Source: an uncultured Eubacteriales bacterium (lineage in GTDB: Bacteria > Bacillota > Clostridia > Christensenellales > CAG-138). Taken from it: a stretch of 42,148 nt of DNA. Of the stretch, positions 16,874-36,764 are shown piece by piece. The DNA lies in the NCBI GenBank assembly GCA_902761365.1, contig CACWJZ010000015.1, positions 1 to 42,148 of the forward strand, read 5' to 3'. The notes beneath the pieces were generated by a model, which made no database searches, was not told the origin of the DNA, and was given only the letters and a program-made list of their open reading frames with translations. Position numbers and translations under genes: made by a program. How positions within the stretch are numbered: position 1 is the first letter of the stretch; each line of letters begins with the position of its first letter.

Positions 16874-18340
16874 TTATTTTATGATCAATATCCTTTCCTT
16901 CCCGCAGAAGGGCTCGGAGAGCTCCCCGTTCAGCTCCTGCAGGCGCCGCTGGGGGATGCCGAACCGCTTGCCCACGGTGAACAGGTTCTCGTCCGGGTCC
17001 GGGGCGTAGATGAGGATGCCTCGGCCCGGCTGGGTGCCCGGCCCGGCCAGCAGGTCGTCGGTGTAGCCGATGGGGTTTTCGGCGTACTGTTCCCCGGAGA
17101 AGAGCAGCTCCACCCGCCCCTGCAGCACCCGCCCCCGGCCCGTGACCGTGGAGAAGGCCGCGGCGGAAAGGGGCAGCACCAGGCCCCCCTGACCCGGCAG
17201 GGTGAGGGAGAAGGGCACCTCCCCCGTGAAGCTGTGCAGTAGGCCGCTGTCGCACCGGTACACCGTGGTCACCAGGACCACGCCCTCCAGGAGCGTCCCG
17301 CCCTCCGTGGGCTCCAGACCCGTGATGGCGGGCAGGGCTCGGCTGTAGAGGACCTGTTGGACCTCCGGCATATGGTTGGGCACGGCGAGGGGCCCCTCCA
17401 CCGTTTCCTCCTTCAGCACCGGCCCCAGGTACATGAGCCCCGTTTTCTCCTCCCGGTGGCAGAGGAAGGTGCCGCCCTCGTCGTAGGCGTCGTACAAAAT
17501 GCGCATGCGGCTCTCCGCGCCCCCGTAGGCGGACACGGACACGTCCCCGCTCAAAAACAGCGCCTCCCCGTCCGTCCGGGCGGACAGGCCGTTCAGCTCC
17601 GCGTTCAGCGCGGCGCCCTGGCTGGTTTGCCCCTCCAGCTTCACCGTGTCGGTGAAGGGGGTCCGCACCGGCATCTCCCGGAGCCGTCCCTCCGGGTCCA
17701 GCAGCACCAACGAGGAATACAGCTCCCCTTCCAGGGCCATGCCCTCGCCCGTCTGGCGGCTGGACAGGATGCGGACCGTGCCCTTGCTTTCCAACACGTT
17801 GGTGCCCGCCTCCACGCCCAGTTCGTCCCGGACCTGGATGGCCTTGGCCCCCTGCAGCGACCGGCGCCGGGTCACAATGGTCTCCTCCCGGCTTTCGAGG
17901 CCCACCGCGCCGCGGATGGCGGACACGGCCCCCACCTCCCGGGGCAGCAGCAGCCACACCTTCAAGTCCAGGACCGCGCTCAGGCGCAGGCCGTCGTCCT
18001 CCCGGTGGCAGGCGCACTTCAGCAGCTGCCCGTAGATCCGGGGCTGCAGACCGTCCTCTGTGATCCGGGCGCTGATGAGGTGGGTGAACTCCGCCGCCGC
18101 GTCGAAGGAGAACAGCACCCGCTCCCCGGTCTCCGCGATCAGGTGGAGCTGGAGCTGGCCGCTGAGCCGGACCCCCGTTTCGCCCACCCGGACCTCCCGG
18201 ATCTGCAGCTCGGGCGTCACCGATAGCACGCTCCCGGCGGTCCGCCCCTGGGGCAAGGGGATGGCGCTCTCGATGGGCACCTGTTCCTCCAGCTGCATAT
18301 ACAGGGTATCTACGTTGAAACTGACCTTTTCCACATCCAT
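16874..18340 (-). CDS. SipL-like spore-coat morphogenesis protein (SPOCS/DUF3794 + LysM)
   Basis: A 488-residue protein with repeated SPOCS (DUF3794) domains: IRGAVGLESREETIVTRRRS near residue 150, VLYSRALPAITGLEPTEGGT near 335, and an N-terminal copy from about 10 to 110. A C-terminal LysM module follows: DENLFTVGKRFGIPQRRLQE then LNGELSE. In C. difficile SipL binds SpoIVA and anchors the coat. ATG at 18340 has GGGAGG eight bases upstream; an in-frame ATG at 18346 is too close to it. Supports a spore-forming host. Single gene. Confidence 0.85.
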   Translation of the reverse strand: MDVEKVSFNVDTLYMQLEEQVPIESAIPLPQGRTAGSVLSVTPELQIREVRVGETGVRLSGQLQLHLIAETGERVLFSFDAAAEFTHLISARITEDGLQPRIYGQLLKCACHREDDGLRLSAVLDLKVWLLLPREVGAVSAIRGAVGLESREETIVTRRRSLQGAKAIQVRDELGVEAGTNVLESKGTVRILSSRQTGEGMALEGELYSSLVLLDPEGRLREMPVRTPFTDTVKLEGQTSQGAALNAELNGLSARTDGEALFLSGDVSVSAYGGAESRMRILYDAYDEGGTFLCHREEKTGLMYLGPVLKEETVEGPLAVPNHMPEVQQVLYSRALPAITGLEPTEGGTLLEGVVLVTTVYRCDSGLLHSFTGEVPFSLTLPGQGGLVLPLSAAAFSTVTGRGRVLQGRVELLFSGEQYAENPIGYTDDLLAGPGTQPGRGILIYAPDPDENLFTVGKRFGIPQRRLQELNGELSEPFCGKERILIIK

Positions 18341-18476
18341 GGCCATGACCTCCCATAGGGTTTCTTTCCCCACAGCCTATGCCGCCTTGCCGAAAAAAAG
18401 ACCCGGCCAGGCGCGATGGAGGCGGGACATTTTCCATGGCATCCTGTATACTGAACGATACGGAGGACCGCGACGC

Positions 18477-23571: not shown

Positions 23572-23826
23572 TCAGGCTTCGTGCAGTTCTACGCTGAGAT
23601 TCCGATTCCTTTTGGCCGCGTCCTTTATCACAGGCAAAAACCGCTGGGCCGAGGGGGAGGCCGTCCCGGTGAGGATGAGGCGGGTGGGCTCGCCGATGTC
23701 CGTCAAACAGTCGTGCAGCGCGTCCAAATTCCGGCCGAACCAGGCGGGGAAGCGCAGCTCCCCCTGGAGATAGTCGTAGACCGCCTCAGGGGTGCCGAGC
23801 CGTTCAAAATCGCACAAAATCAGCAT
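23572..23826 (-). CDS. Barstar-family ribonuclease inhibitor
   Basis: An 84-residue barstar homologue: LILCDFERLGTPEAVYDYLQ followed by GELRFPAWFGRNLDALHDCL matches the barstar core, including the F-P-x-W/Y-F-G-x-N-L-D-A-L-x-D-x-L signature that blocks the barnase active site. It lies three bases after the ribonuclease gene on the same strand, the classical protector order in the cytoplasm. No signal peptide, as expected for an inhibitor that acts inside the cell. Confidence 0.93.
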   Translation of the reverse strand: MLILCDFERLGTPEAVYDYLQGELRFPAWFGRNLDALHDCLTDIGEPTRLILTGTASPSAQRFLPVIKDAAKRNRNLSVELHEA

Positions 23827-23829
23827 GGT

Positions 23830-24441
23830 TCATTCCTCCCCGTAGAGCAAGGTGAAGCTTTCGTAGTGGTCGTCGGTGTAGTAGATGAGGCCGTCGTTGG
23901 AATAGATGATGCGCTTGGCGCCCCGGGAGCGCTTCCCCACGGTGTCGATGTCGCATTCGTAGTAACTGCGGCCCTTTTTCTTGGGCAGCAGGCCCTCAAA
24001 GTTTCCGAAATAGTCTCCGCCGATGGCTCCGCCGGGAATGTAATCCTCCACCTCGCCACCGGTCCAGCCCAGCTTCCGGGCCTGCTCCTTGGTGATGAAG
24101 TGGGGCGGCAGCTCCCCGTAGAGGTGCAGGTACAGGGCCACCCGGTCCTTGTCGTCGTAGTCCTCCCCGTACTGCACCGGGCTCTCCGTGCCCCGGGGCG
24201 TAGGGGCAGCCGTGGGCTTGGGCGCCTTGGTGGGCTTCGGTGCATCCGTGGGCGCAGGCGTGTCCGCCGGTCCCTGGGGCGTGTCCGGTAGCAGGACGAG
24301 GCTGTCGTCTATGGGCGCTTCCGTAGGCTCCGCCGTGGCAGGCGGGTCCGTCAGCTGGACGAACGCGCTTTGAGCCGGTCGAGAGGCGCAGCCGACCAGC
24401 AGGAGCAGCAGTATGAGCGTCAGGGAGAAAACCTTTTTCAT
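23830..24441 (-). CDS. Barnase-family ribonuclease, exported lipoprotein
   Basis: The 203-residue precursor has a lipoprotein signal (VFSLTLILLLLLVGCAS, Cys at 18), a Pro/Thr/Ala-rich stalk (residues about 40-95, TDAPKPTKAPKPTAAPTP) and a C-terminal barnase domain: DRVALYLHLYGELPPHFITK, EQARKLGW, GGDYFGNFEGLLP (catalytic Glu), GRSYYECDI (Arg), and RIIYSNDGLIYYTDDHYESF (catalytic His). It would cut RNA outside the cell while anchored to the membrane. GAGG precedes ATG at 24441, but a TTGCAC-N17-TATACT promoter ends only six bases upstream. Confidence 0.92.
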   Translation of the reverse strand: MKKVFSLTLILLLLLVGCASRPAQSAFVQLTDPPATAEPTEAPIDDSLVLLPDTPQGPADTPAPTDAPKPTKAPKPTAAPTPRGTESPVQYGEDYDDKDRVALYLHLYGELPPHFITKEQARKLGWTGGEVEDYIPGGAIGGDYFGNFEGLLPKKKGRSYYECDIDTVGKRSRGAKRIIYSNDGLIYYTDDHYESFTLLYGEE

Positions 24442-24447
24442 GTCCTC

Positions 24448-24476
24448 AGTATACACCCCGGGACCCCATTGTGCAA
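24448..24476 (-). promoter_or_regulatory. Barnase-barstar promoter
   Basis: Minus strand TTGCAC (24476-24471), 17 bp, TATACT (24453-24448). The -10 ends six bases before the ATG, implying a leaderless or nearly leaderless message. Confidence 0.55.
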
Positions 24477-27665: not shown

Positions 27666-30600
27666 TCAGTTGTCATAGAAGAAGCTGCGCAGCCACTGAT
27701 ACCGCTCGCCTTCCCGCCAGCCGTCGCCGGTCTCGTCCCGGGTGGTGCAGTTGCAGACGCAGCCGGGAAGAGCATCGATCACGGCCTGGTTCTGGGCCGC
27801 GGAGAGACCGTTCATGGAGAACCAGAGGCGCTTGGCCTGAGTGAACTGCAACAGTGGCGTAACATCCTCCAAATGGATGTTGGCGATGTTGATGTCTGTG
27901 AGATGGGGAAGACCCACCAGGGGCGATACGTCGGGGATGTTGTTCATGAACAGCTCCACATATTGCAGCTCTTGGAGGCAGCTGAGGGCGGAGATGTCCG
28001 TGATCTTGTTGTCCGCCAGGATCAGCAGCTGCAGGTGAGGCAGGTATTGGAGCACCTCCAGATCCTCATTGGTCAGGTAGTTGTGCCCCAGGTCCAGGGC
28101 CAAAAGGTCCGTGCAATATTTGAGGTCCTTCAGATCTCCGGCCTTCAGACGCTTGGTCTTCTTGATCCGGTTGTTCATGGCGTCGCTGTAGTAGGACTGG
28201 GTGTACTTGGATGGATTCTTGGTGGAGAAGGCGATGGCGTCCGTTCGGATGGCATGTTGTCTGAGATGGATCGTCCATACGAACTTCACGTCGGGCCGGG
28301 CGGCCATGAGCACCTCCATCTGCTCGTTGCTGAGCCCGCAGTCGCACATGATCAGCTTCTTCAGGTACGGCAGTTGAGCGATCTCAGATAGCACCGCCTC
28401 GGGAGACTTGAAGACGGTCTTGCTTACGTCCAGCTCCTCCGCGGCGTTGTCCATGACCTGCCCAAACACGGTCACCCGGCGGACGAACACCGTCTCCGGG
28501 TGCTCCGACTGCAGTTGGGCGACAGCCGTATCCGTATCCTCCCTTTCGGGCAGGTACACCTTCTTTAGCGCGGAGAAGGCCCGCAGCAGAGGGATCAGCT
28601 CCTGGACGGAGCAGGAGGCGTTTCGCAAATCCAGCTCCGCAGCGCCCGTTTCCACTTTTTGGCCCAGCAGATCCACGGTCTGCAGGATTTTTAGCTCGGG
28701 GCGTGCCGCCTGGACGGAAAGCACATCCTCCAGCCCCAGGGCGGTGCCGTGCAGGTCCACCGTCTGCAACTCGGGCAGATAGGGCAGGGCAAAGAGCAGT
28801 TCGTCCACGTTGGGCAGATTGGCGTTCGCCAGGGCGATGGATGTTGCTTCTACGGGGAAGTGGGCGTCGCCCACGGGCACGGTATAGGAAACGGTGAGAT
28901 CAGGGTACTGGCCGGACAGAGCCATCACGTCCGCCGGGTCGATGGTCGCTTCCGTCAGGTCCAGGACCCGCAGGCGGGGGAAGGCCGCCAAGCCCTTTTC
29001 CAGCAGCTGGAAGTCGGGGGCCTCCCGCACTGTCAGCGCTTCGTCCGCCATGGTCAAAACCTGATCCCCTACGACCAGGGTGAAGGTCAAGGAGAGATCC
29101 GGTCGGGTCTCCATGAGGGATAGCAGGGCGTCATAGGCGGTACTTCCTGAGGCGTCGACGGCGCTGAGCTGTTCAAAGTAAGACAGCAGCTGCCCATCCT
29201 CCGGGGAGAAGTGGGGCAGCACCAGCTCCGTGCTGTCACAGGGGAAGCGCCCGTCCGTCAGGGGTATGGCCCATAGGATCTGGCAGTCCGCCGGGACCGC
29301 CTGGCGGATGGCTTCATACCAGGTGGGGGTCACCTGTTCGCAGGCCGTTACATCCAGCTTGCGCAGCTCCGGATACGCGGCCAGGGCCGCGGGCTCGGGC
29401 AGGGTCTCCGTGGTGAAGCTGAGCTCGCAGACTGGCGCAGCTGTGGGGGCCGTGGAAGCGGTCGGGGCGGGCTCAGCCACCTGGGGACGGCGCTCGTTCA
29501 CCAACATCAGTGCGGCGCCCAAGGACAGGAGCAGAGCGAAGAGCCACAACAGGATCCGCTGCCACCAGTGTTTGGTCAGAAAGGAGACGCTAAGGCAGAG
29601 GATGGCGGCGATGCCGATGAGCAGCGGCAGCAGCCAAGACAGGAACGATGCTTCTTCCGGGTCCGCGGGCGTTTCTGCGGGGGCTGATGCTTCCGGGTCC
29701 GGTGCTTCGGGGGCCGGCGTATGGGCGGCAGCTGTCTCCTGGGATGCCGGCGTGTCGGTGGGCATCGGCGTGTCCGCAGGCGCAGGCGTATCTTCGGGGA
29801 CCGGCGTGTCGGTGGGCGTCGATGCGTCCGCAGGCGCAGACGTATCTTCGGGGACCGGCGTGTCGGTGGGCGTCGGTGCGTCCGCAGGCGCCGACGTATC
29901 CGTAGGTACAGGCATATCCGTAGACGCAGGCCCGGCCGAGCTGTAGAAGGACGCGGCCTCGATATGTTCAAAGGGATCGTTCAAGCTCGGGGTGTCCAGC
30001 CCTACGGTGGTGTATGCGAGACCGAAGTCGGACAGGCTGTACACGCCCTCGTTCCTGACCGCGTGACGGGAGGGCAGTTGGGATCGGTGGCATTGGAAGG
30101 CGGCCGTGGCGATCTCCACCGGGGTCAGTCCGCCGTATGCGTCGATGGCCTTGGTGGCAGGTAGCTGGATGGGGTTTTCCGGGTACAGGTGCAGATACAG
30201 CTTCTTGATCTCCCAAGTGCCGTACTGTGCTGCGGATTTCTTGTCATAGGTGGAGTCGGCGGCCAGGGGTACTGCCTCCTGGACTGCGTTGGCCAAAATC
30301 ACGTGCTGCCAGTGGCCGTATTCTCCGTTGAGATCGTGGGAAAAGACCACTTCGGGCCGATACTGACGGAACAGGCGCACCAGGTAGCGGACCATGTCCT
30401 TCTGCTGAAACGTGTCCTGATGCTGCTCTCGGTAGCTGGGGGGTATATCGGGGAAGGTGCCCAGGATGGGCGCCTTGCGCAGCCCCATGATCCATGCTCC
30501 GTTGCCGGCCTCGTCCTTGCGGACCCGCTCCCGGGTGGCGGCGTAGAAGATGGAGCCATCCCATCCCTGCTCCACGGTGTACAGGGGAACTATGGCGCCC

Positions 30601-31172
30601 ATGAACAGCACGTCGTCGTCGGGATGCATGGCCACGATCAGATAGTCCAGCTTCTCAGGGGTGGGCTCCCAGGGATGGTAACTGGGGATGACGCCTTCCC
30701 CATAGGCGTACAGGGAACTGAGGTTGATCTCACTCTTGGACACCACTGATATGGACCGGGTCCCCTCCTCCAGGGAAACGATCTGGTTGACGTACCAGGA
30801 GCCGGGCACTTCCTTGAGCAGGGTACCTTCGCGGTCAAACTGTTGGAACGTGAAGGAATCGGCAGCGGGGTAGTCCTTGAATGCCATCCAGATGGTCTTC
30901 ACGGGAATACCCTCTCGCCAGGTCAGGGTCACCCGCTGTCCGTCCTTCAGGATCTGGCTGGAATTCAGATCCGCATCGGTGAGCCGCCAGGTGTAGGCGG
31001 TGGATTTAAGATCGGAGGTGAGGCGGCAGTGGTGGGTCAGATTCTCCGCCACGGGACCTTCCGCTTCGATAGAATAGGCGAAAGGGTCCGTCTCCGCGCG
31101 GGAAACGCGCAGGGAGGGAAGGGCCATCAGCAGTGCAGCGATCAACAAACAGGCAATCAGGGTTTTCTTCAT
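27666..31172 (-). CDS. Surface protein: PIG-L deacetylase + transmembrane hairpin + leucine-rich repeats
   Basis: The 1168-residue protein has a signal peptide (1-26), a beta-rich region (27-170), and a PIG-L/LmbE N-acetylglucosaminyl deacetylase domain (about 173-400) with LIVAMHPDDDVLFMGA (metal ligands His183, Asp186) and SHDLNGEYGHWQHVILA (His287, His290). A Thr/Pro/Asp-rich linker (415-505) holds an 18-residue tandem repeat. Two membrane helices (about 509-532, 538-558) follow, then about ten LRRs (LKKLIMCDCGLSNEQMEVL, LLALDLGHNYLTNEDLEVL and others) to the end. RBS is weak (AAGAAGAG). The upstream lipoprotein gene ends 10 bp before. I know of no such architecture; deacetylation of a surface glycan is inference. 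Confidence 0.85.
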   Translation of the reverse strand: MKKTLIACLLIAALLMALPSLRVSRAETDPFAYSIEAEGPVAENLTHHCRLTSDLKSTAYTWRLTDADLNSSQILKDGQRVTLTWREGIPVKTIWMAFKDYPAADSFTFQQFDREGTLLKEVPGSWYVNQIVSLEEGTRSISVVSKSEINLSSLYAYGEGVIPSYHPWEPTPEKLDYLIVAMHPDDDVLFMGAIVPLYTVEQGWDGSIFYAATRERVRKDEAGNGAWIMGLRKAPILGTFPDIPPSYREQHQDTFQQKDMVRYLVRLFRQYRPEVVFSHDLNGEYGHWQHVILANAVQEAVPLAADSTYDKKSAAQYGTWEIKKLYLHLYPENPIQLPATKAIDAYGGLTPVEIATAAFQCHRSQLPSRHAVRNEGVYSLSDFGLAYTTVGLDTPSLNDPFEHIEAASFYSSAGPASTDMPVPTDTSAPADAPTPTDTPVPEDTSAPADASTPTDTPVPEDTPAPADTPMPTDTPASQETAAAHTPAPEAPDPEASAPAETPADPEEASFLSWLLPLLIGIAAILCLSVSFLTKHWWQRILLWLFALLLSLGAALMLVNERRPQVAEPAPTASTAPTAAPVCELSFTTETLPEPAALAAYPELRKLDVTACEQVTPTWYEAIRQAVPADCQILWAIPLTDGRFPCDSTELVLPHFSPEDGQLLSYFEQLSAVDASGSTAYDALLSLMETRPDLSLTFTLVVGDQVLTMADEALTVREAPDFQLLEKGLAAFPRLRVLDLTEATIDPADVMALSGQYPDLTVSYTVPVGDAHFPVEATSIALANANLPNVDELLFALPYLPELQTVDLHGTALGLEDVLSVQAARPELKILQTVDLLGQKVETGAAELDLRNASCSVQELIPLLRAFSALKKVYLPEREDTDTAVAQLQSEHPETVFVRRVTVFGQVMDNAAEELDVSKTVFKSPEAVLSEIAQLPYLKKLIMCDCGLSNEQMEVLMAARPDVKFVWTIHLRQHAIRTDAIAFSTKNPSKYTQSYYSDAMNNRIKKTKRLKAGDLKDLKYCTDLLALDLGHNYLTNEDLEVLQYLPHLQLLILADNKITDISALSCLQELQYVELFMNNIPDVSPLVGLPHLTDINIANIHLEDVTPLLQFTQAKRLWFSMNGLSAAQNQAVIDALPGCVCNCTTRDETGDGWREGERYQWLRSFFYDN
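29752..29913 (-). repeat. 54-bp tandem repeat inside the PIG-L/LRR gene
   Basis: Three copies (29752-29805, 29806-29859, 29860-29913), each starting GTGTCGGTGGGC on the plus strand and encoding an 18-residue Thr/Pro/Asp/Ala unit (APADAPTPTDTPVPEDTS-like). Copies are nearly identical in DNA, so copy number may vary between strains. Confidence 0.85.
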
Positions 31173-31182
31173 ATACTCTTCT

Positions 31183-32838
31183 TTATCGTCTCAGGGATAG
31201 TTCCTCTGACGCGCCGATCAGGCCGAGACTGCGCGTCAGCCGATCCAAAGCTCTGTCCTCGTTGGCATGCTCCAGAGCCTTGGTGAGCCAGGGCGGGAAA
31301 TCCTCCTTAGGGATGTGGGACGTTCCCTTCCAGATGCGGTTCTTGGGGTTCAATCGCCCCTGGTTGGCATAGACGGCGTCCATGTTGAAGTGCAGCCGCC
31401 CCTGAACGTTGCGGAAGGTCAAAATCAGGAAGGACAGGTGAGGAGCCTCCATCTCATAGAGCAGGAAGGCGTCGGCTTCACCGTCCTTGTCCCGGTCGAT
31501 CCGGTCAACAACCATCTCGTAGTGTTTATTGACTTGGATAAAGTCGCCGCTGCGGAGCTGGTAGTGTTTGATCTTGTTGTCCTTGTGGCGATTGACTTCG
31601 CCCAGGCGGCCGATCTCCCAGCCGGTGCTGCCGTTGCTGATGTCCAGTCCCGCCTGCTTCAGGGCCCAAACGATGGACCCCACGCACTGCATGCCCGTAT
31701 ACCAGTAGGTTCCGTTGCCGTCCTTGGTGGGCCGCTTGAGCTTGGCGCCCCATTGGGGGTTGAAGCCCCAGTCGTCCTTCTCCTGGTACTTGCCGGCGCC
31801 CTGATAGGGGATGGTGTAGCCCAGGGCCGCCATGTGGGATATGGCAGAGACCGCGGAGGTCACCGCGCCCTCCCGGGTGTAGATGCCCGCCTGCGCGATG
31901 TCGGCGGCCACGGCCTCATTCAGCTCCTTGACGGAGGTCCCCGCCGCTTCAGCCATCTCGGCCAGCGGCGTCCGCAGGGCGGACAGCCCCTCGGCCCGGA
32001 TGGGGTAGAGGTAGCCGGAGTTCACGGTGATGGGGTAGGGCTCGCTGACGCGTCCCTCGCTGTCCCGAACGAAGAGGAAGTAATCCCCGTCATACTTGAA
32101 GACCCGGAAGGGATCGCCCGTCACCGGCAGCCAGTCCTTGGACTTCTCCGACGGCGGGGTGCTGAGGCAGGAGAAACAGTACTCCGTGGCAGTGGTCCCC
32201 TCCTGCAGCTCCACGGTCACCACGGCTTTGCAGGCGTAGGCATAGGCGATGACAGGCCCGTCCGCCGCTGCAGCGGGCAGGGTGCCCGGCGCGTTGGGTG
32301 CTTGGGAAAAAGCAGTGTCGGGAGCAGCCGTCAGAACGAGGTCGCTCTGTCCCTTCTGGATCAGAGTCAACGTTTGGCCATCGCAGGTGTAGGGGATCAC
32401 GGTCGTGTGCCCGTCCGCAGCGGTGAGGGTCAGCAGTCCGTCCGAAGCGGCATACAGACCAGCCGCTTCCCGGTCCGGCAGGATCGCTCGGTAACGCCCA
32501 TCGCTCTGGAGGGTCAGAGAGAAACCCGTCTCCCCATAGCCCCAGGTTTGCGCGAGCGGGTCGGGCACGGGCGTCGGGGTAGGTTCCGGGGTGGGTGTCG
32601 GCGTCGGTGTGGGCTCCGGCGTGGGGACCGGGGTGGGCTTTGGCGTAGGAGCGGGGGTGGGCGACGGTGTCAGGACAGGTGCTTCTGTCTCGTTCGCCGC
32701 AATGATCATTTCGGCTGCCGCAGGGGCGGATGTAACCATAGCTGCCTGAGGCGACCTTTCAGGGGCACAGGCCGCCCCTCCCAGCACCAGGGCCAGCAGA
32801 AGGGCGATATATCTCGCTTTCAAATGGGCAGGACCCAT
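31183..32838 (-). CDS. Lipoprotein with papain-like (NlpC/P60- or CHAP-like) domain
   Basis: The 551-residue precursor has a lipobox (LVLGGAAC, Cys24), a Pro/Thr stalk (about 55-95, PTPTPEP-type), a beta-rich region (95-270), and a C-terminal domain with GTYWYTGMQCVGSIVWALKQ (probable nucleophile Cys385) and LRSGDFIQVNKHYEMVVDRI (probable His439), the order expected of NlpC/P60 or CHAP enzymes that cut peptidoglycan peptides. Shine-Dalgarno AAAGGA. It is first in an operon with the PIG-L/LRR gene 10 bp downstream. Family assignment rests on the Cys/His pattern only, so enzymatic activity is tentative. Confidence 0.75.
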   Translation of the reverse strand: MGPAHLKARYIALLLALVLGGAACAPERSPQAAMVTSAPAAAEMIIAANETEAPVLTPSPTPAPTPKPTPVPTPEPTPTPTPTPEPTPTPVPDPLAQTWGYGETGFSLTLQSDGRYRAILPDREAAGLYAASDGLLTLTAADGHTTVIPYTCDGQTLTLIQKGQSDLVLTAAPDTAFSQAPNAPGTLPAAAADGPVIAYAYACKAVVTVELQEGTTATEYCFSCLSTPPSEKSKDWLPVTGDPFRVFKYDGDYFLFVRDSEGRVSEPYPITVNSGYLYPIRAEGLSALRTPLAEMAEAAGTSVKELNEAVAADIAQAGIYTREGAVTSAVSAISHMAALGYTIPYQGAGKYQEKDDWGFNPQWGAKLKRPTKDGNGTYWYTGMQCVGSIVWALKQAGLDISNGSTGWEIGRLGEVNRHKDNKIKHYQLRSGDFIQVNKHYEMVVDRIDRDKDGEADAFLLYEMEAPHLSFLILTFRNVQGRLHFNMDAVYANQGRLNPKNRIWKGTSHIPKEDFPPWLTKALEHANEDRALDRLTRSLGLIGASEELSLRR

Positions 32839-32903: not shown

Positions 32904-32933
32904 ACTATACCCCTTCGCTCCTTTTCTTGTCAA
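32904..32933 (-). promoter_or_regulatory. Promoter of the lipoprotein-PIG-L/LRR operon
   Basis: Minus strand TTGACA (32933-32928), 18 bp, TATAGT (32909-32904). About 65 bp of leader precede the start codon. Confidence 0.65.
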
Positions 32934-33040: not shown

Positions 33041-33053
33041 ACCTCTCGAACGT

Positions 33054-33125
<72 letters not shown>

Positions 33126-33170
33126 CCCGCTTTCACCCGTTGACCATAAAATGAGGGTTGAAGCACAGAT

Positions 33171-33199
33171 TTACTGTATTTTTACTGTATTTTACTGTC
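33171..33199. repeat. Three helically phased TTACTGT repeats beside tRNA-Asn
   Basis: TTACTGTA at 33171-33178 and 33182-33189, and TTACTGTC at 33192-33199: periods of 11 and 10 bp. Position between the tRNA 3' end and the integrase gene suggests integrase arm-type binding sites of an att region. Confidence 0.55.
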
Positions 33200-33220
33200 G
33201 AGACCGTTCAAGATAAGGGA

Positions 33221-33254
33221 AAAGCCGCAGGTCTTTTATAAAACCTGCGGCTTT
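33221..33254. terminator. Terminator of the integrase gene
   Basis: AAAGCCGCAGGT (33221-33232) pairs with ACCTGCGGCTTT (33243-33254). It lies 24 bp past the integrase stop codon; T-tracts flank both sides. Confidence 0.8.
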
Positions 33255-33278
33255 CTTTGACCCCTGAATCCAGCGTTA

Positions 33279-34430
33279 TTATACGTTCTCGGCCGGTTCA
33301 GCAAGAGAGCGCTGCAGATGGGCGTTCAGCGTCCGGATACCCTCTTGCCGCTTGGCGTCTGTCAAGTGAGTATAGATCATCAGCGTCGTATGGATGTCAG
33401 CATGCCCCGCTATCTCTTGGGTGACCTTCACATCCACGCCCGCCTCATGACACATCGTGATAAAGGTATGTCGGAGCTGATGAGCTGAAAAAGGCTCAAT
33501 AGCGACGACTTTGGGATTGATGCGGCTTCGATCTTTACCGCCGGCCTGAATGTTCAGGAAGTGCATATAGCTGCTCCACGAGGTCTGCCAGGAGGTATCG
33601 GTCATCTGTGTCCCCTGAGCCGAAGGGCATACCATCGTGCTTGTGGCATGCTTTTTTGCCTCTGCTAAGATTTCATATAGAACGTCGATGATCGGAACGT
33701 CCCGGGTGCCGGCTGCGGTCTTTGGCTTTTTGACCCGAGCCTGGTTGTGCGCTTCGAAAGCCACCGATCTCCAGACGTGGATCACGCGTTTGTTCAGATC
33801 CACATCCGTCCATTGCAGAGCCAGCAGCTCTCCTCTTCTCAATCCGGCATACAGCATCACCATGACAGGGACTCCCATGCGGTGCCCCTGATATGTTCTT
33901 TTGACCAAGTCGATCTGCTCCAGGGTGAGAGGCAGTCGCTTTTTCGGTTCAATGGACGGGATCTTTACCCGTTCGAACACGTTTCGCACAAGGATATCAT
34001 TGTCCTGTGCAAGGCGCATGACCTGGGAAGCCACCTGCTTCACATGGCTCATCACCTTAGTGCTGTATCCGGCTTTTGCCATTCGGTTGATGATCGTCTG
34101 CAGATGAGCGTTTCGCAATTCTGTCAGCCGCATATGCTTTAGCTCTGCCAGATGATTCTTGCAGATTGAAACGTATTGCTTACGTACACCCTCCGATATC
34201 GTAGGCTTGTACTCATTGCACAAGAGATCGGCCATCTCTCCGAAGGTCACGTTCTCATAGACCGGCAGCATACCGTGTGCAAGCTTATCCCGATACTCAG
34301 CCACTTTTGCTTCCAGTTCCTTCTGCGTGTGCGCATAGATGACTTTTCTGTCGGGATCCCCGTTGGCTTTTCTGCCGATGGTGAGGCAACGCTGATACAG
34401 GCCGTCCTGCCTCTTTTTTGATCTTGCCAT
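33279..34430 (-). CDS. int: Tyrosine recombinase / integrase
   Basis: The 383-residue integrase has an AP2-like arm-binding N-terminus (RQDGLYQRCLTIGRKANGDP), a core-binding SAM-like domain (VTFGEMADLLCNEYKP to about residue 170) and a catalytic domain with Arg (LYAGLRRGELLALQW), HQLRHTF (H-x-x-R), IAGHADIHTTLMIYTH (His) and the nucleophile Tyr in that segment. ATG at 34430 follows GAGG; a TTG five codons upstream is less likely. The gene faces the tRNA-Asn gene, the probable integration target. All catalytic residues are intact. Confidence 0.95.
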   Translation of the reverse strand: MARSKKRQDGLYQRCLTIGRKANGDPDRKVIYAHTQKELEAKVAEYRDKLAHGMLPVYENVTFGEMADLLCNEYKPTISEGVRKQYVSICKNHLAELKHMRLTELRNAHLQTIINRMAKAGYSTKVMSHVKQVASQVMRLAQDNDILVRNVFERVKIPSIEPKKRLPLTLEQIDLVKRTYQGHRMGVPVMVMLYAGLRRGELLALQWTDVDLNKRVIHVWRSVAFEAHNQARVKKPKTAAGTRDVPIIDVLYEILAEAKKHATSTMVCPSAQGTQMTDTSWQTSWSSYMHFLNIQAGGKDRSRINPKVVAIEPFSAHQLRHTFITMCHEAGVDVKVTQEIAGHADIHTTLMIYTHLTDAKRQEGIRTLNAHLQRSLAEPAENV

Positions 34431-34503
34431 TATTCTACCTCGCAACTAATCCATAAATAGATAATTAAGCAATACCCCTTTTTCGAAGGGACGACAAGTC
34501 TGG

Positions 34504-35358
34504 CTACCGTTCATGCTCATGGCGATGAGCTTTCTCCCGTTCCCGCTGTCGGAGCAGGGACACCAGCTCGTCCTCGATCTCCCGGGGTGTGGCGTCGATG
34601 GGGAAGTACTCCGCAAACCGGTCCATGGACAGGATCAGCCGCTCCCTTTGCTTGCCTTTGCCTGCGTACAGGATGTCCAGGGGCTTCTCAAGGTCCAGCT
34701 CGCCTCGGGCCGCGCAGGCACGCATCTCCTTCGCCTGGGCTACGGAGGGGATCATCCCCTCCGTTTCTATGGCCTGCAGCACGTATCCCTGCTCCTCTTC
34801 GGAAAGATAGGACAGCTCCACACCCGGGATAATGCCCATCCGGTCCTCGTCCACCAGCTCCAGCAGGCCCGGGATCAGCCAGGTCAGGCGGATGTATCTC
34901 TGGACCTGTTTGAATCGCTCTCCGGTCTCCTCCTCCATGGCGCGGACATAATGTCCGCGCTGCAGCAGCGCCTCCATCCGCATCCGGTAGGCGAAGGCCC
35001 GCTCACTGGGGAGGATCTTCTCCCGCTGTCGGTTGGCGTCCACCATCATGAGGGTGGCGGTGTCGTCGTCCATCTCCCGGACGATCACCGGCATCTTCTC
35101 CAGGCCCAGGACCCTGCAGGCTGCCAGGCGCCTGTGGCCGGAGACCATCTCATAGCCTCCTTCCGGCAGGGGCCGGACCACCGCCGGGGTGATCACGCCG
35201 CTGGTCCGGATGCTCTCCTTCAGCGCTTCCATATCAGCGTCCTCCCTGACCTTGAAGGGATGGCCACGAAAGGGACAGATGCTGTCCAAAGTGACAGCCT
35301 GCACCCGCTCGCCGGGCAGGATGACGTCCGGTGTTTTCTGTTTTCTACCATCCATCAT
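34504..35358 (-). CDS. ParB/RepB-like partition or nuclease-type protein
   Basis: A 284-residue ParB-family protein: the ParB/Srx motif appears as VSGHRRLAACRVLGLEKMPV (GxxRRxxA box) preceded by LKESIRTSGVITPAVVRPLP, then an HTH region (EETGERFKQVQRYIRLTWLI). The CTP-binding type of fold is inferred from family. The ATG at 35358 overlaps the mobC stop (ATGA) with GGAGG eight bases before it. No ParA ATPase is present, so it may regulate genes or mark DNA rather than segregate a plasmid. Confidence 0.88.
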   Translation of the reverse strand: MMDGRKQKTPDVILPGERVQAVTLDSICPFRGHPFKVREDADMEALKESIRTSGVITPAVVRPLPEGGYEMVSGHRRLAACRVLGLEKMPVIVREMDDDTATLMMVDANRQREKILPSERAFAYRMRMEALLQRGHYVRAMEEETGERFKQVQRYIRLTWLIPGLLELVDEDRMGIIPGVELSYLSEEEQGYVLQAIETEGMIPSVAQAKEMRACAARGELDLEKPLDILYAGKGKQRERLILSMDRFAEYFPIDATPREIEDELVSLLRQREREKAHRHEHER

Positions 35359-35672
35359 GCCCAGGTCCTCCATGCGGCGCGGATCTTGCTTTGAACATCC
35401 TTCAGGATCTTTTTCGCTTCCGTCAGGTCTTCACTGGTCAGATCCATCCGGTTCGCCCGATACGCGATCTGATTCAGGTTGGTTCCCAGATGACTGATCT
35501 CAGTGACCAGGGACAGAAAGTCCATATTGGGACGTTCCCGAATCTCCTGCCCCGTGATCAGCTTACGGATGACCGTGGAATGATTGATATTGCTGAACCG
35601 GCTCAGCTGCTCCAGCTTTTCATATTCTTTCTCGTTCAGATATACCTGAACGGCTCGTTTGCGTGTACGCAT
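35355..35672 (-). CDS. mobC: MobC-like plasmid mobilization / relaxosome protein
   Basis: A 105-residue protein with an N-terminal ribbon-helix-helix region (AVQVYLNEKEYEKLEQLSRF) and the MobC hallmark FLSLVTEISHLGTNLNQIAY followed by RANRMD. MobC helps open oriT and recruits the relaxase. Start at ATG 35672, with AAAGGA nine bases upstream. The next gene upstream is separated by a 170-bp inverted- and direct-repeat region that looks like oriT. No MobA/relaxase gene is visible in the window. Confidence 0.85.
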   Translation of the reverse strand: MRTRKRAVQVYLNEKEYEKLEQLSRFSNINHSTVIRKLITGQEIRERPNMDFLSLVTEISHLGTNLNQIAYRANRMDLTSEDLTEAKKILKDVQSKIRAAWRTWA

Positions 35673-35707
35673 TTCTTCGTATCCTTTCCCCGCGAAAAGC
35701 GGCATAG

Positions 35708-35836
35708 GGGTCCGGGGCGTACCCGGCAAGCGCGGATGTCATGACAAATGCTATGCTTGCAGAGACAGGCGGCGTCATGACAGATCCCATGCTTGCGGGG
35801 ACAGCGGCGACGCCGCCTGTCATTCACCCCGGACCC
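35708..35836. other. Candidate oriT / origin-like repeat region
   Basis: Nested perfect inverted repeats: GGGTCCGGGG (35708-35717) with CCCCGGACCC (35827-35836), and GACAGGCGGCGTC (35764-35776) with 35809-35821. Two direct 31-bp repeats beginning GTCATGACA (35738-35768 and 35774-35804, about 25/31 identical) share ATGCTTGC and GACAG; each contains the palindrome GTCATGAC. The location between mobC and the replication-type gene suits an oriT or replication/partition site; the exact role is undetermined. Confidence 0.6.
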
Positions 35837-35842
35837 GTTGGA

Positions 35843-36565
35843 TCAGAGCGCCCGGCGGGCGTTCACCATGCAGTCCATGGGCGCGTTGTAGAGGCAGGAG
35901 ATAAGATAGTTCTCCCCGCAGGTGACGGGATCGCAGCGGTTTCCCAGCTGAGCCTCGATGAAGTCGATGTGGTCGATGGTCAGCATCCGGAGCCTGTCCC
36001 GGACAGCGTCCCGGGGGATCTGCTGTTTCTTCACCGTGATCTCTTCCGCCCGGTACATGGTGCGGATGGCCTGATCGATACTCTTGGCAAAGCCCTGGTC
36101 GTAGAAGGTGTCCAGATGGAGCTCCGCCAGTATCCTCTCCAGATCGTTCCCGTCGTCTCCCGTTGTACCGATTGACGGAACGGCTATTATAGTATTGCTA
36201 TCGTTATTCACTTCCGCTCCATTTGCTGCACCACCCTCCAACACGGTTTGCACCGGGGCCGGTGCATCCGGTGAACCGGGGATGCGGAGCGTATAGATGT
36301 TCGCCTGGCGCCGCCGCTTACCGTTCTTGCTCTCGGCATAGCTGGGCGTGACGGAGACGATCCCGGCGCTCTCCAGTTCCCGGAGCGCCTTGCGGACCGT
36401 GTTTTTGCAGCATCCGCAGCAGCGGGCGATGGAAGCTATGGACGGGTAGCAGGTCCCTTCCTTATTGCTGGTCCGGGACAGATAGGTCAGGACCAGCTTC
36501 GCTTTGGAGGAGATGCCCATCTCGAACAAGGTCGTCGTCACGTAAAAGGTCGTCCGCTTCGCCAT
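35843..36565 (-). CDS. HTH/DUF6017 replication-initiator-like protein
   Basis: A 240-residue protein common in Firmicutes integrative elements. The N-terminal winged-helix (HTH_36 type) is SSKAKLVLTYLSRTSNKEGT followed by CYPSIASIARCCGCCKNTVR and KALRELESAGIVSV. The C-terminal DUF6017 region is DAVRDRLRMLTIDHIDFIEA through NYLISCLYNAPMD. Such proteins probably start replication of the excised element; this is knowledge of similar elements, not proof here. It begins one base after the excisionase stop. Confidence 0.8.
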   Translation of the reverse strand: MAKRTTFYVTTTLFEMGISSKAKLVLTYLSRTSNKEGTCYPSIASIARCCGCCKNTVRKALRELESAGIVSVTPSYAESKNGKRRRQANIYTLRIPGSPDAPAPVQTVLEGGAANGAEVNNDSNTIIAVPSIGTTGDDGNDLERILAELHLDTFYDQGFAKSIDQAIRTMYRAEEITVKKQQIPRDAVRDRLRMLTIDHIDFIEAQLGNRCDPVTCGENYLISCLYNAPMDCMVNARRAL

Positions 36566-36566
36566 G

Positions 36567-36764
36567 TCACGCCTCCATCTGCCGGTCCATCCACTGGAGG
36601 AACTGGTCCCGGGGGACCAGGATCCGCTTGCCCACCCGCAGGGTGGGGAACCCCTTGGCGTGGGCCAGGTTATAGGCTCCCACCCGGGAGATGCCCAGGA
36701 AGGCTGCCAGCTCTTCCACGCTCAGGGTGTAGGGGAGCTCGTCCGTGTGAGTGTACTTCTTCAT
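36567..36764 (-). CDS. xis: Excisionase-family DNA-binding protein
   Basis: A 65-residue MerR-like/HTH_17 protein: TLSVEELAAFLGISRVGAYN followed by LAHAKGFPTLRVGKRILVPR and DQFLQWMDRQ is the usual Xis/AlpA pattern. It would bend att DNA and direct integrase to excision, or regulate the element. RBS GAGGAAAAG precedes ATG at 36764. It is first of the recognisable genes xis-rep-(oriT)-mobC-parB-int on this strand. Confidence 0.85.
   Translation of the reverse strand: MKKYTHTDELPYTLSVEELAAFLGISRVGAYNLAHAKGFPTLRVGKRILVPRDQFLQWMDRQMEA

What the first reader, a model, noticed from the sequence alone, without database searches (positions are those of the whole stretch)
27666..32838. PIG-L deacetylase fused through a membrane hairpin to leucine-rich repeats, in an operon with a papain-like lipoprotein
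The 1168-residue product combines a signal peptide, an apparently intact PIG-L/LmbE site (HPDDD and H-x-x-H), a variable Thr/Pro stalk, two membrane helices and about ten LRRs. Its partner, ending 10 bp upstream, is a lipoprotein with a Cys/His domain of NlpC/P60 or CHAP appearance, and alr lies 107 bp downstream. Together they could be a surface system that recognises (LRR), deacetylates (PIG-L) and cleaves (papain-like) cell-wall or foreign glycan. I know of no described system of this composition; the function is inference.
Basis: partly seen in the sequence, partly recalled or inferred. Interest (0 to 1): 0.8.

Follow-up and report, generated by a model that had tools for sequence, protein, structure and literature searches.

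The report
Surface glycan-editing enzyme cassette, receptor fused
A Clostridia bacterium, probably from a rumen, carries a predicted surface enzyme that removes acetyl groups from sugars, fused to a receptor-like repeat domain and encoded beside a probable wall-cutting lipoprotein; relatives keep these parts together as neighbouring genes, so this is probably a real but uncharacterised machine for editing surface glycans.

Summary
The 1168-aa protein has a signal helix, a beta domain, an intact PIG-L site, a disordered Thr/Pro stalk, a two-helix hairpin and a long LRR solenoid. The partner 10 bp upstream is a probable lipoprotein with a Cys-His-Glu domain that profile comparison places near NlpC/P60. 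The set recurs in relatives: of 38 partner loci with usable flanks, 32 have PIG-L in the same cassette and 2 only a phosphodiester glycosidase (NAGPA). The catalytic Cys is kept in all 34 and lost in the 4 orphans. Elsewhere PIG-L and LRR are separate genes a few bases apart, one ending and the other starting in a membrane anchor, so the hairpin looks like a fusion scar. Best reading: a membrane-anchored envelope-glycan editing cassette: LRR positions, PIG-L deacetylates GlcNAc, the NlpC/P60-like enzyme cuts peptide or amide bonds. Anatomy and linkage are shown; substrates, activity and location are inferred. In whole-genome samples it was found in one family only (29 of 103 genomes). My paper searches found no description.

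The parts
27669..31172 (-). PIG-L/LRR surface protein, 1168 aa (gene 27666-31172 with stop)
31107..31172 (-). signal peptide / N-terminal helix, residues 1-22
   Evidence: model helix 2-22, hydropathy peak at 10
30702..31028 (-). beta-rich domain of unknown type, residues 49-157
   Evidence: strands in the model; less conserved than the enzyme domains
29946..30656 (-). PIG-L (CE14-like) deacetylase domain, about residues 173-409; HPDDD 183-187 and HxxH 287-290
   Evidence: Pfam PF02585, Foldseek MshB/chitobiose deacetylase, catalytic residues
29649..29942 (-). disordered Thr/Pro/Ala stalk, residues 411-508
   Evidence: pLDDT under 50 over most of it, composition
29499..29657 (-). two-helix membrane hairpin, helices 506-532 and 536-558, loop TKHWWQR
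27678..29426 (-). LRR solenoid, residues 583-1165
   Evidence: Foldseek internalin A 2omy E 4e-9; LRR_4/LRR_8 above cut-off at the C-terminal end
31186..32838 (-). partner, probable lipoprotein, 551 aa (gene 31183-32838 with stop)
31216..32043 (-). NlpC/P60-like domain of the partner, about residues 266-541; Cys385, His439, Glu462
   Evidence: model of residues 91-551 with pLDDT 91.8, hhalign against NlpC/P60, conservation
32904..32933 (-). sigma-70-like promoter site upstream of the partner
   Evidence: pattern match 11 of 12; not above chance in number

Best explanation
This is a two-gene version of a recurrent cell-surface glycan-editing cassette. The lipoprotein is a surface-tethered NlpC/P60-like cysteine hydrolase (Cys385-His439-Glu462). 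The second protein places a zinc-type PIG-L deacetylase and a long LRR solenoid outside the same membrane, joined by a two-helix hairpin. In relatives these are two genes a few bases apart, a C-terminally anchored PIG-L and an N-terminally anchored LRR protein, so the hairpin most simply arose by fusing the two anchors. Proposed action (inferred): LRR and the beta domains hold or recognise an envelope substrate, PIG-L removes acetyl groups from GlcNAc in it, and the NlpC/P60-like enzyme cuts an amide or peptide bond in the same polymer, most likely the bacterium's own envelope glycans. Some relatives add a NAGPA phosphodiester glycosidase. Shown: anatomy (by sequence and model), active-site residues, conserved linkage, co-loss, loss of the catalytic Cys in copies without the linkage. 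Inferred: surface location and topology, substrates, chemistry, own versus foreign target.
For: Folds and motifs. Linkage: in 32 of 38 usable partner loci PIG-L is the next gene or one gene (LRR) away, and 2 more have only NAGPA; 4 further loci were dropped as contig ends or fragments. Of the 21 window-type loci with PIG-L, 18 also have LRR (6 fused, one of them frameshifted; 12 separate), 2 reach a contig end on one side without showing it, 1 lacks it. C-H-E is intact in 34 of 34 loci with a neighbour; Cys is lost in 4 of 4 orphans. In 12 genomes of the genus the partner orthologue occurs in exactly the 5 that keep the fused protein (one frameshifted) and in none of the other 7, two of which carry a truncated remnant. 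Distances of partner, PIG-L and LRR correlate over 14 cassettes (Mantel r 0.80-0.91, p 0.0001). In 9 of 9 split pairs looked at, PIG-L ends in a hydrophobic helix plus basic tail and LRR begins with a hydrophobic helix or lipobox. A partner paralogue (L053) is fused to a NodB-type polysaccharide deacetylase. MBOAT and DHHW/AlgX-like genes lie beside the cassette in G005.
Against: No activity, substrate or localisation is measured. The partner itself has no NlpC/P60 match in Pfam; NLPC_P60 is touched by 5 of 18 relatives, best E 0.0062. Foldseek of the partner model shows no NlpC/P60 structure in its 50 listed rows; beta-sandwich proteins dominate. A profile search of the PDB gives NlpC/P60 only at E 3.6. 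In the divergent-pair paralogues and in G028 the PIG-L protein has Asn, Gln or Arg in place of His287, so linkage there need not mean deacetylation. Known PIG-L enzymes mostly act on small GlcNAc conjugates (recalled). The cassette is patchy: 29 of 103 genomes of the family, 7 of 297 sampled in the order, 1 of 391 sampled in the class, the own genome, so it is not general wall machinery. The orphans may be one lineage, and related genomes are not independent counts.
Confidence: 0.6

Rival explanations
1. The same enzymes act on foreign glycans: the cassette is an antagonism or predation device in which LRR recognises a competitor's surface.
For: Within the genus the beta domain (identity 0.47-0.64) and LRR parts (0.43-0.75) diverge more than the enzyme cores (0.72-0.85), and G008 lacks about 210 residues of repeats. 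The cassette is patchy. A published survey interprets NAGPA plus NlpC/P60 proteins with variable binding domains in Bacillota as likely conflict systems (PMC12419801, section 31 read).
Against: Both proteins are predicted to be membrane-anchored and no delivery domain appears among their Pfam hits. Immunity genes were not searched for. Faster change of binding domains is common in surface proteins.
Confidence: 0.2
2. The cassette scavenges or processes environmental GlcNAc glycans (fungal chitin, mucin, plant or host glycans) in the rumen.
For: The closest solved PIG-L folds include chitobiose deacetylases. 5 of 15 named relatives have a ruminant gut site in the title, and 5 more bear RUG names, which I recall as rumen MAGs. 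A GH5 cellulase gene lies near the G005 cassette.
Against: No shared transporter or glycosidase set was evident among the neighbours I annotated, which were a subset. An NlpC/P60-like enzyme has no obvious role in glycan uptake.
Confidence: 0.12
3. The PIG-L protein modifies a small molecule or antibiotic at the surface rather than a polymer.
For: Weak NCBIfam hits to MshB, Mca and BshB1, far below their cut-offs; Foldseek rows include LnmX.
Against: Predicted surface anchoring, LRR fusion and the conserved NlpC/P60-like partner do not fit.
Confidence: 0.05
4. The architecture is an artefact: mis-assembly or chance adjacency.
For: The window lies in a MAG-like genome of 69% completeness in 116 contigs.
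Against: Full-length fused orthologues occur in G005, G011 and G008 and the set recurs in 32 of 38 usable loci, while PF02585 finds only 3-10 matches per genome of the genus.
Confidence: 0.01

Closest known systems
PIG-L / LmbE (CE14) de-N-acetylases: MshB, BshB1, archaeal chitobiose deacetylase
   Same: Fold, HPDD...HxxH motif, probable zinc GlcNAc deacetylation (zinc role recalled)
   Different: Here predicted secreted, membrane-anchored and fused to LRR, with an extra beta domain; far below the MshB and BshB1 equivalog cut-offs
NlpC/P60 cysteine peptidases (and CHAP)
   Same: Cys at a helix N-terminus, GD motif, His, acidic third residue (order recalled); profile match 95.7% probability
   Different: Divergent; no Pfam NlpC/P60 hit for the window protein; bond cut unknown
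Internalin-type and other bacterial LRR proteins
   Same: LRR solenoid; best Foldseek rows are InlA
   Different: Far below internalin family cut-offs; most of the solenoid consists of 67-residue units; membrane hairpin
NAGPA + TelC (+ NlpC/P60) predicted conflict proteins of Bacillota (PMC12419801; section 31 and search passages seen)
   Same: NAGPA with NlpC/P60 and variable extracellular binding domains
   Different: The term PIG-L does not occur in its main text; TelC was not searched for here; here the parts are separate anchored proteins
PplD, streptococcal wall-linkage GlcNAc deacetylase (PMC8807736; abstract and outline seen)
   Same: Deacetylation of GlcNAc at a 1-phosphate linkage in the cell wall
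   Different: No LRR, NlpC/P60 or NAGPA partner is named in its abstract; NodB-type fold (recalled)

Membership tests
PIG-L (PF02585) | profile score above the curated cut-off | tested here: met
   45.8 bits against 28.2
PIG-L (PF02585) | metal/catalytic motif HPDD and HxxH | tested here: met
   intact in the window; 16 of 16 aligned cassette rows keep H183, D185, D186, H287 and H290; roles recalled
PIG-L (PF02585) | metal-dependent deacetylase activity | not testable with these tools
   needs an enzyme assay
MshB / BshB1 / Mca equivalogs | equivalog cut-off | tested here: not met
   38.5 of 224.35, 25.8 of 182.5 and 33.4 of 277.15 bits
NlpC/P60 (PF00877) | profile score above the curated cut-off | tested here: not met
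   no match for the window protein; 5 of 18 members match at E up to 10, best 0.0062
NlpC/P60 superfamily (wide sense) | profile-profile similarity with the Cys motif aligned | tested here: met
   hhalign 95.7%, E 9e-9 (94.6% and 90.2% for subsets); unrelated controls at most 1.5%
NlpC/P60 superfamily (wide sense) | fold match to a solved member | tested here: inconclusive
   whole-partner Foldseek dominated by beta domains, no NlpC/P60 in 50 listed rows; topology consistent in the model
Internalins | internalin family cut-off | tested here: not met
   about 40 bits against 1050-1600; only the LRR matches
Bacterial lipoproteins (partner) | signal peptide with lipobox Cys | tested here: inconclusive
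   GGAAC in the window, LSAC and LAAC in orthologues, read by eye; Pfam LPAM_1 touches 2 of 18 relatives; distant relatives use other anchors

The most novel reading that the evidence does not exclude
The four recurrent parts form a modular machine that edits the junction between peptidoglycan and a phosphodiester-linked wall polymer: LRR docks on the polymer, PIG-L converts the linkage GlcNAc to GlcN (which would change sensitivity to NAGPA), NAGPA cuts the GlcNAc-1-phosphate bond, and the NlpC/P60-like enzyme opens the peptide stem. Degenerate PIG-L domains fused to NAGPA would then be substrate-binding adaptors.
Probability: 0.12. Interest if true: 0.78.

Novelty: new variant of a known kind. 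Interest (0 to 1): 0.58.

Why it matters
It is a linked set of predicted surface enzymes, with an LRR part that may be a receptor, in Clostridia known here only from metagenome-assembled genomes. Linkage, gene fusion, co-loss and loss of the catalytic Cys all point to a functional unit. If the activities are as proposed, it adds extracellular PIG-L deacetylation, guided by LRRs, to the known ways bacteria edit envelopes, and gives a defined gene set to assay.

Tried and rejected
Considered and rejected: alr as a functional partner (a local neighbour only); an internalin assignment (only LRR similarity); chance adjacency or mis-assembly; a mobile-element origin (the integrase gene lies beyond tRNA-Asn; tblastn of the partner in the plasmid collection found nothing; the phage collection was not searched). 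Led nowhere: Foldseek of the whole partner, PDB profile search with the partner, NCBIfam on partner relatives (low-complexity or weak hits), paper searches for the combination. Only the 50 listed rows of each Foldseek search were seen. Lists were cut by the tool. Relatedness of genomes was not corrected for; the 1-in-792 figure for the genus is therefore not a real probability.
Full report
What is there. The large protein runs: signal helix 2-22; beta-rich domain 49-157; PIG-L about 173-409; disordered Thr/Pro/Ala stalk 411-508; helices 506-532 and 536-558; LRR solenoid 583-1165. The AlphaFold2 model has mean pLDDT 84.7 but pTM 0.44, so the placement of domains relative to each other is not meaningful. 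Foldseek finds internalin A (E 4e-9), MshB (E 4e-8) and chitobiose deacetylase (E 3e-7) with the same model. The motif residues H183, D185, D186, H287 and H290 are intact; their roles are recalled from MshB, not tested. With a signal peptide, the topology predicts PIG-L and LRR outside and the short basic loop TKHWWQR inside (inference).

Partner. The model of residues 91-551 has pLDDT 91.8 and pTM 0.90. Cys385 starts a helix, Gly-Asp precedes a strand, His439 starts the next strand and Glu462 lies in the one after; this is the NlpC/P60 or CHAP order (recalled). The link was tested by profile-profile comparison: 27 partner domains (distant paralogues included) against 18 NlpC/P60 proteins from the same group of genomes gave 95.7% probability and E 9e-9; controls (NAGPA, PIG-L, LRR) were at or below 1.5%. 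The 18 were those of 20 fetched loci that showed the DCS-type motif; 2 were dropped. Against it: no NlpC/P60 match in Pfam for the window protein, no NlpC/P60 row among the 50 listed by Foldseek, E 3.6 in the PDB profile search.

Linkage. A scan of genome contigs with the partner found 15 loci, all titled as MAGs of Clostridia, Clostridiales, Bacillota or (one) Bacilli; 5 titles name a ruminant gut site and 5 bear RUG names. All 15 have a PIG-L gene in the cassette and 14 an LRR gene. PIG-L is the next gene or one gene (LRR) away in 32, only NAGPA is found in 2 (G727:C12, G722:C28), and nothing of the set in 4 (G012:C1, G711:C22, G728:C64, G709:C31; G728 has only about 2 kb on one side). Of the 38, 27 are of the window's type and 11 are divergent-pair paralogues; for 7 of those 11 adjacency was read from the coordinates. 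Cys-His-Glu is intact in all 34 loci with a neighbour; the Cys is Asn or Ser in all 4 orphans. The orphans may be one lineage.

Presence and loss. In 12 genomes of the genus the partner orthologue is in G000, G003, G005, G008 and G011, exactly those that keep the fused protein (in G003 with a frameshift). G001 has lost the PIG-L domain and G010 the LRR part, and neither shows the partner orthologue; the other five show neither. Several of these genomes are only 70-77% complete, so single absences are weak.

Origin of the fusion. In 9 split pairs looked at, PIG-L and LRR are separate genes at gaps of -11 to 25 bases, 6 of them 2-5. PIG-L ends in a hydrophobic helix with a basic tail; LRR begins with a hydrophobic helix or a lipobox. 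Joining them gives the hairpin. A second fused form lies in G723:C72, in another genus of the family, cut by the contig end; fusion either occurred twice or is older, which I did not resolve.

Paralogues and NAGPA. The same genomes carry PIG-L-like proteins with a C-terminal NAGPA domain (4 checked with Pfam, 3 of them with a membrane hairpin before it). In 5 of 6 such fusions examined the PIG-L motif is lost; L023 keeps it. NAGPA lies in the cassette in 8 of the 31 loci whose flanks I searched for it. On 6 further contigs with the divergent pair, NAGPA matches lie about 3-6 kb from PIG-L by coordinates (G001:C4, G003:C13, G004:C45, G007:C31, G010:C45, G011:C26), in genomes with 8-12 NAGPA matches each. 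The divergent-pair PIG-L proteins, and that of G028, have Asn, Gln or Arg at position 287. A partner paralogue is fused to a polysaccharide deacetylase.

Rates and range. Identity to the window in four orthologous cassettes: partner domain 0.72-0.85, PIG-L 0.76-0.82, C-terminal LRR 0.64-0.75, upstream LRR 0.43-0.62, beta domain 0.47-0.64. At E up to 1e-8 the partner family is in 29 of 103 genomes of the family, 7 of 297 sampled in the order, all of the same family, 1 of 391 sampled in the class, which is the own genome, and on no plasmid record.

Literature. Searches listed no paper on PIG-L with LRR and NlpC/P60; the library is open-access only. I read section 31 of PMC12419801: a NAGPA + TelC system with occasional NlpC/P60, interpreted as a conflict system. 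Of PMC8807736 (PplD) and PMC12613277 (C. difficile pig-L knock-out) I saw abstract and outline; the latter reports reduced virulence, less biofilm and more oxidative sensitivity after loss of pig-L. Of PMC4000134 I saw one search passage, a reference.

Verdict. The composition is new to me and to the searches made; the enzyme families are known, so I call it a new variant of a known kind. Function as an envelope-glycan editing cassette is the best reading at 0.6; own wall versus foreign target is open.

Noticed in passing
window 23572-24456 (-): Barstar (23572-23826) next to a barnase-type ribonuclease with a lipoprotein-like start (23830-24456): a likely toxin/immunity pair.
   Followed up: partly
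window 33053-36764: tRNA-Asn followed by tyrosine integrase, ParB-like and HTH genes: probably an integrated element next to the cassette; an integrase with the same start lies beside the truncated PIG-L gene in G010 (L063).
   Followed up: no
L078:1065-3653, L075:8157-10679, L067:10199-12817, L074:5244-7418: PIG-L-like proteins with a C-terminal NAGPA domain and a degenerate PIG-L motif, suggesting pseudo-deacetylase adaptors; hydropathy shows the hairpin in the first three, not in L074.
   Followed up: partly
L053:1246-3435: Partner paralogue fused to a NodB-type polysaccharide deacetylase, with a PIG-L gene beside it by coordinates.
   Followed up: no
L070, L169, L170, L171: Orphan partner copies in genus g2 with the catalytic Cys changed to Asn or Ser.
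   Followed up: yes
L168:8749-12261: A second PIG-L - hairpin - LRR fusion beside a partner copy in another genus, cut by the contig end.
   Followed up: no
window 16874-18373 (-): SipL/SPOCS-domain protein, hinting at a spore-forming ancestry.
   Followed up: no
L059:3881-6795: MBOAT plus DHHW/AlgX-like pair, convergent with the PIG-L/LRR gene in G005; genes with similar starts flank the remnant in G001 (L062).
   Followed up: no
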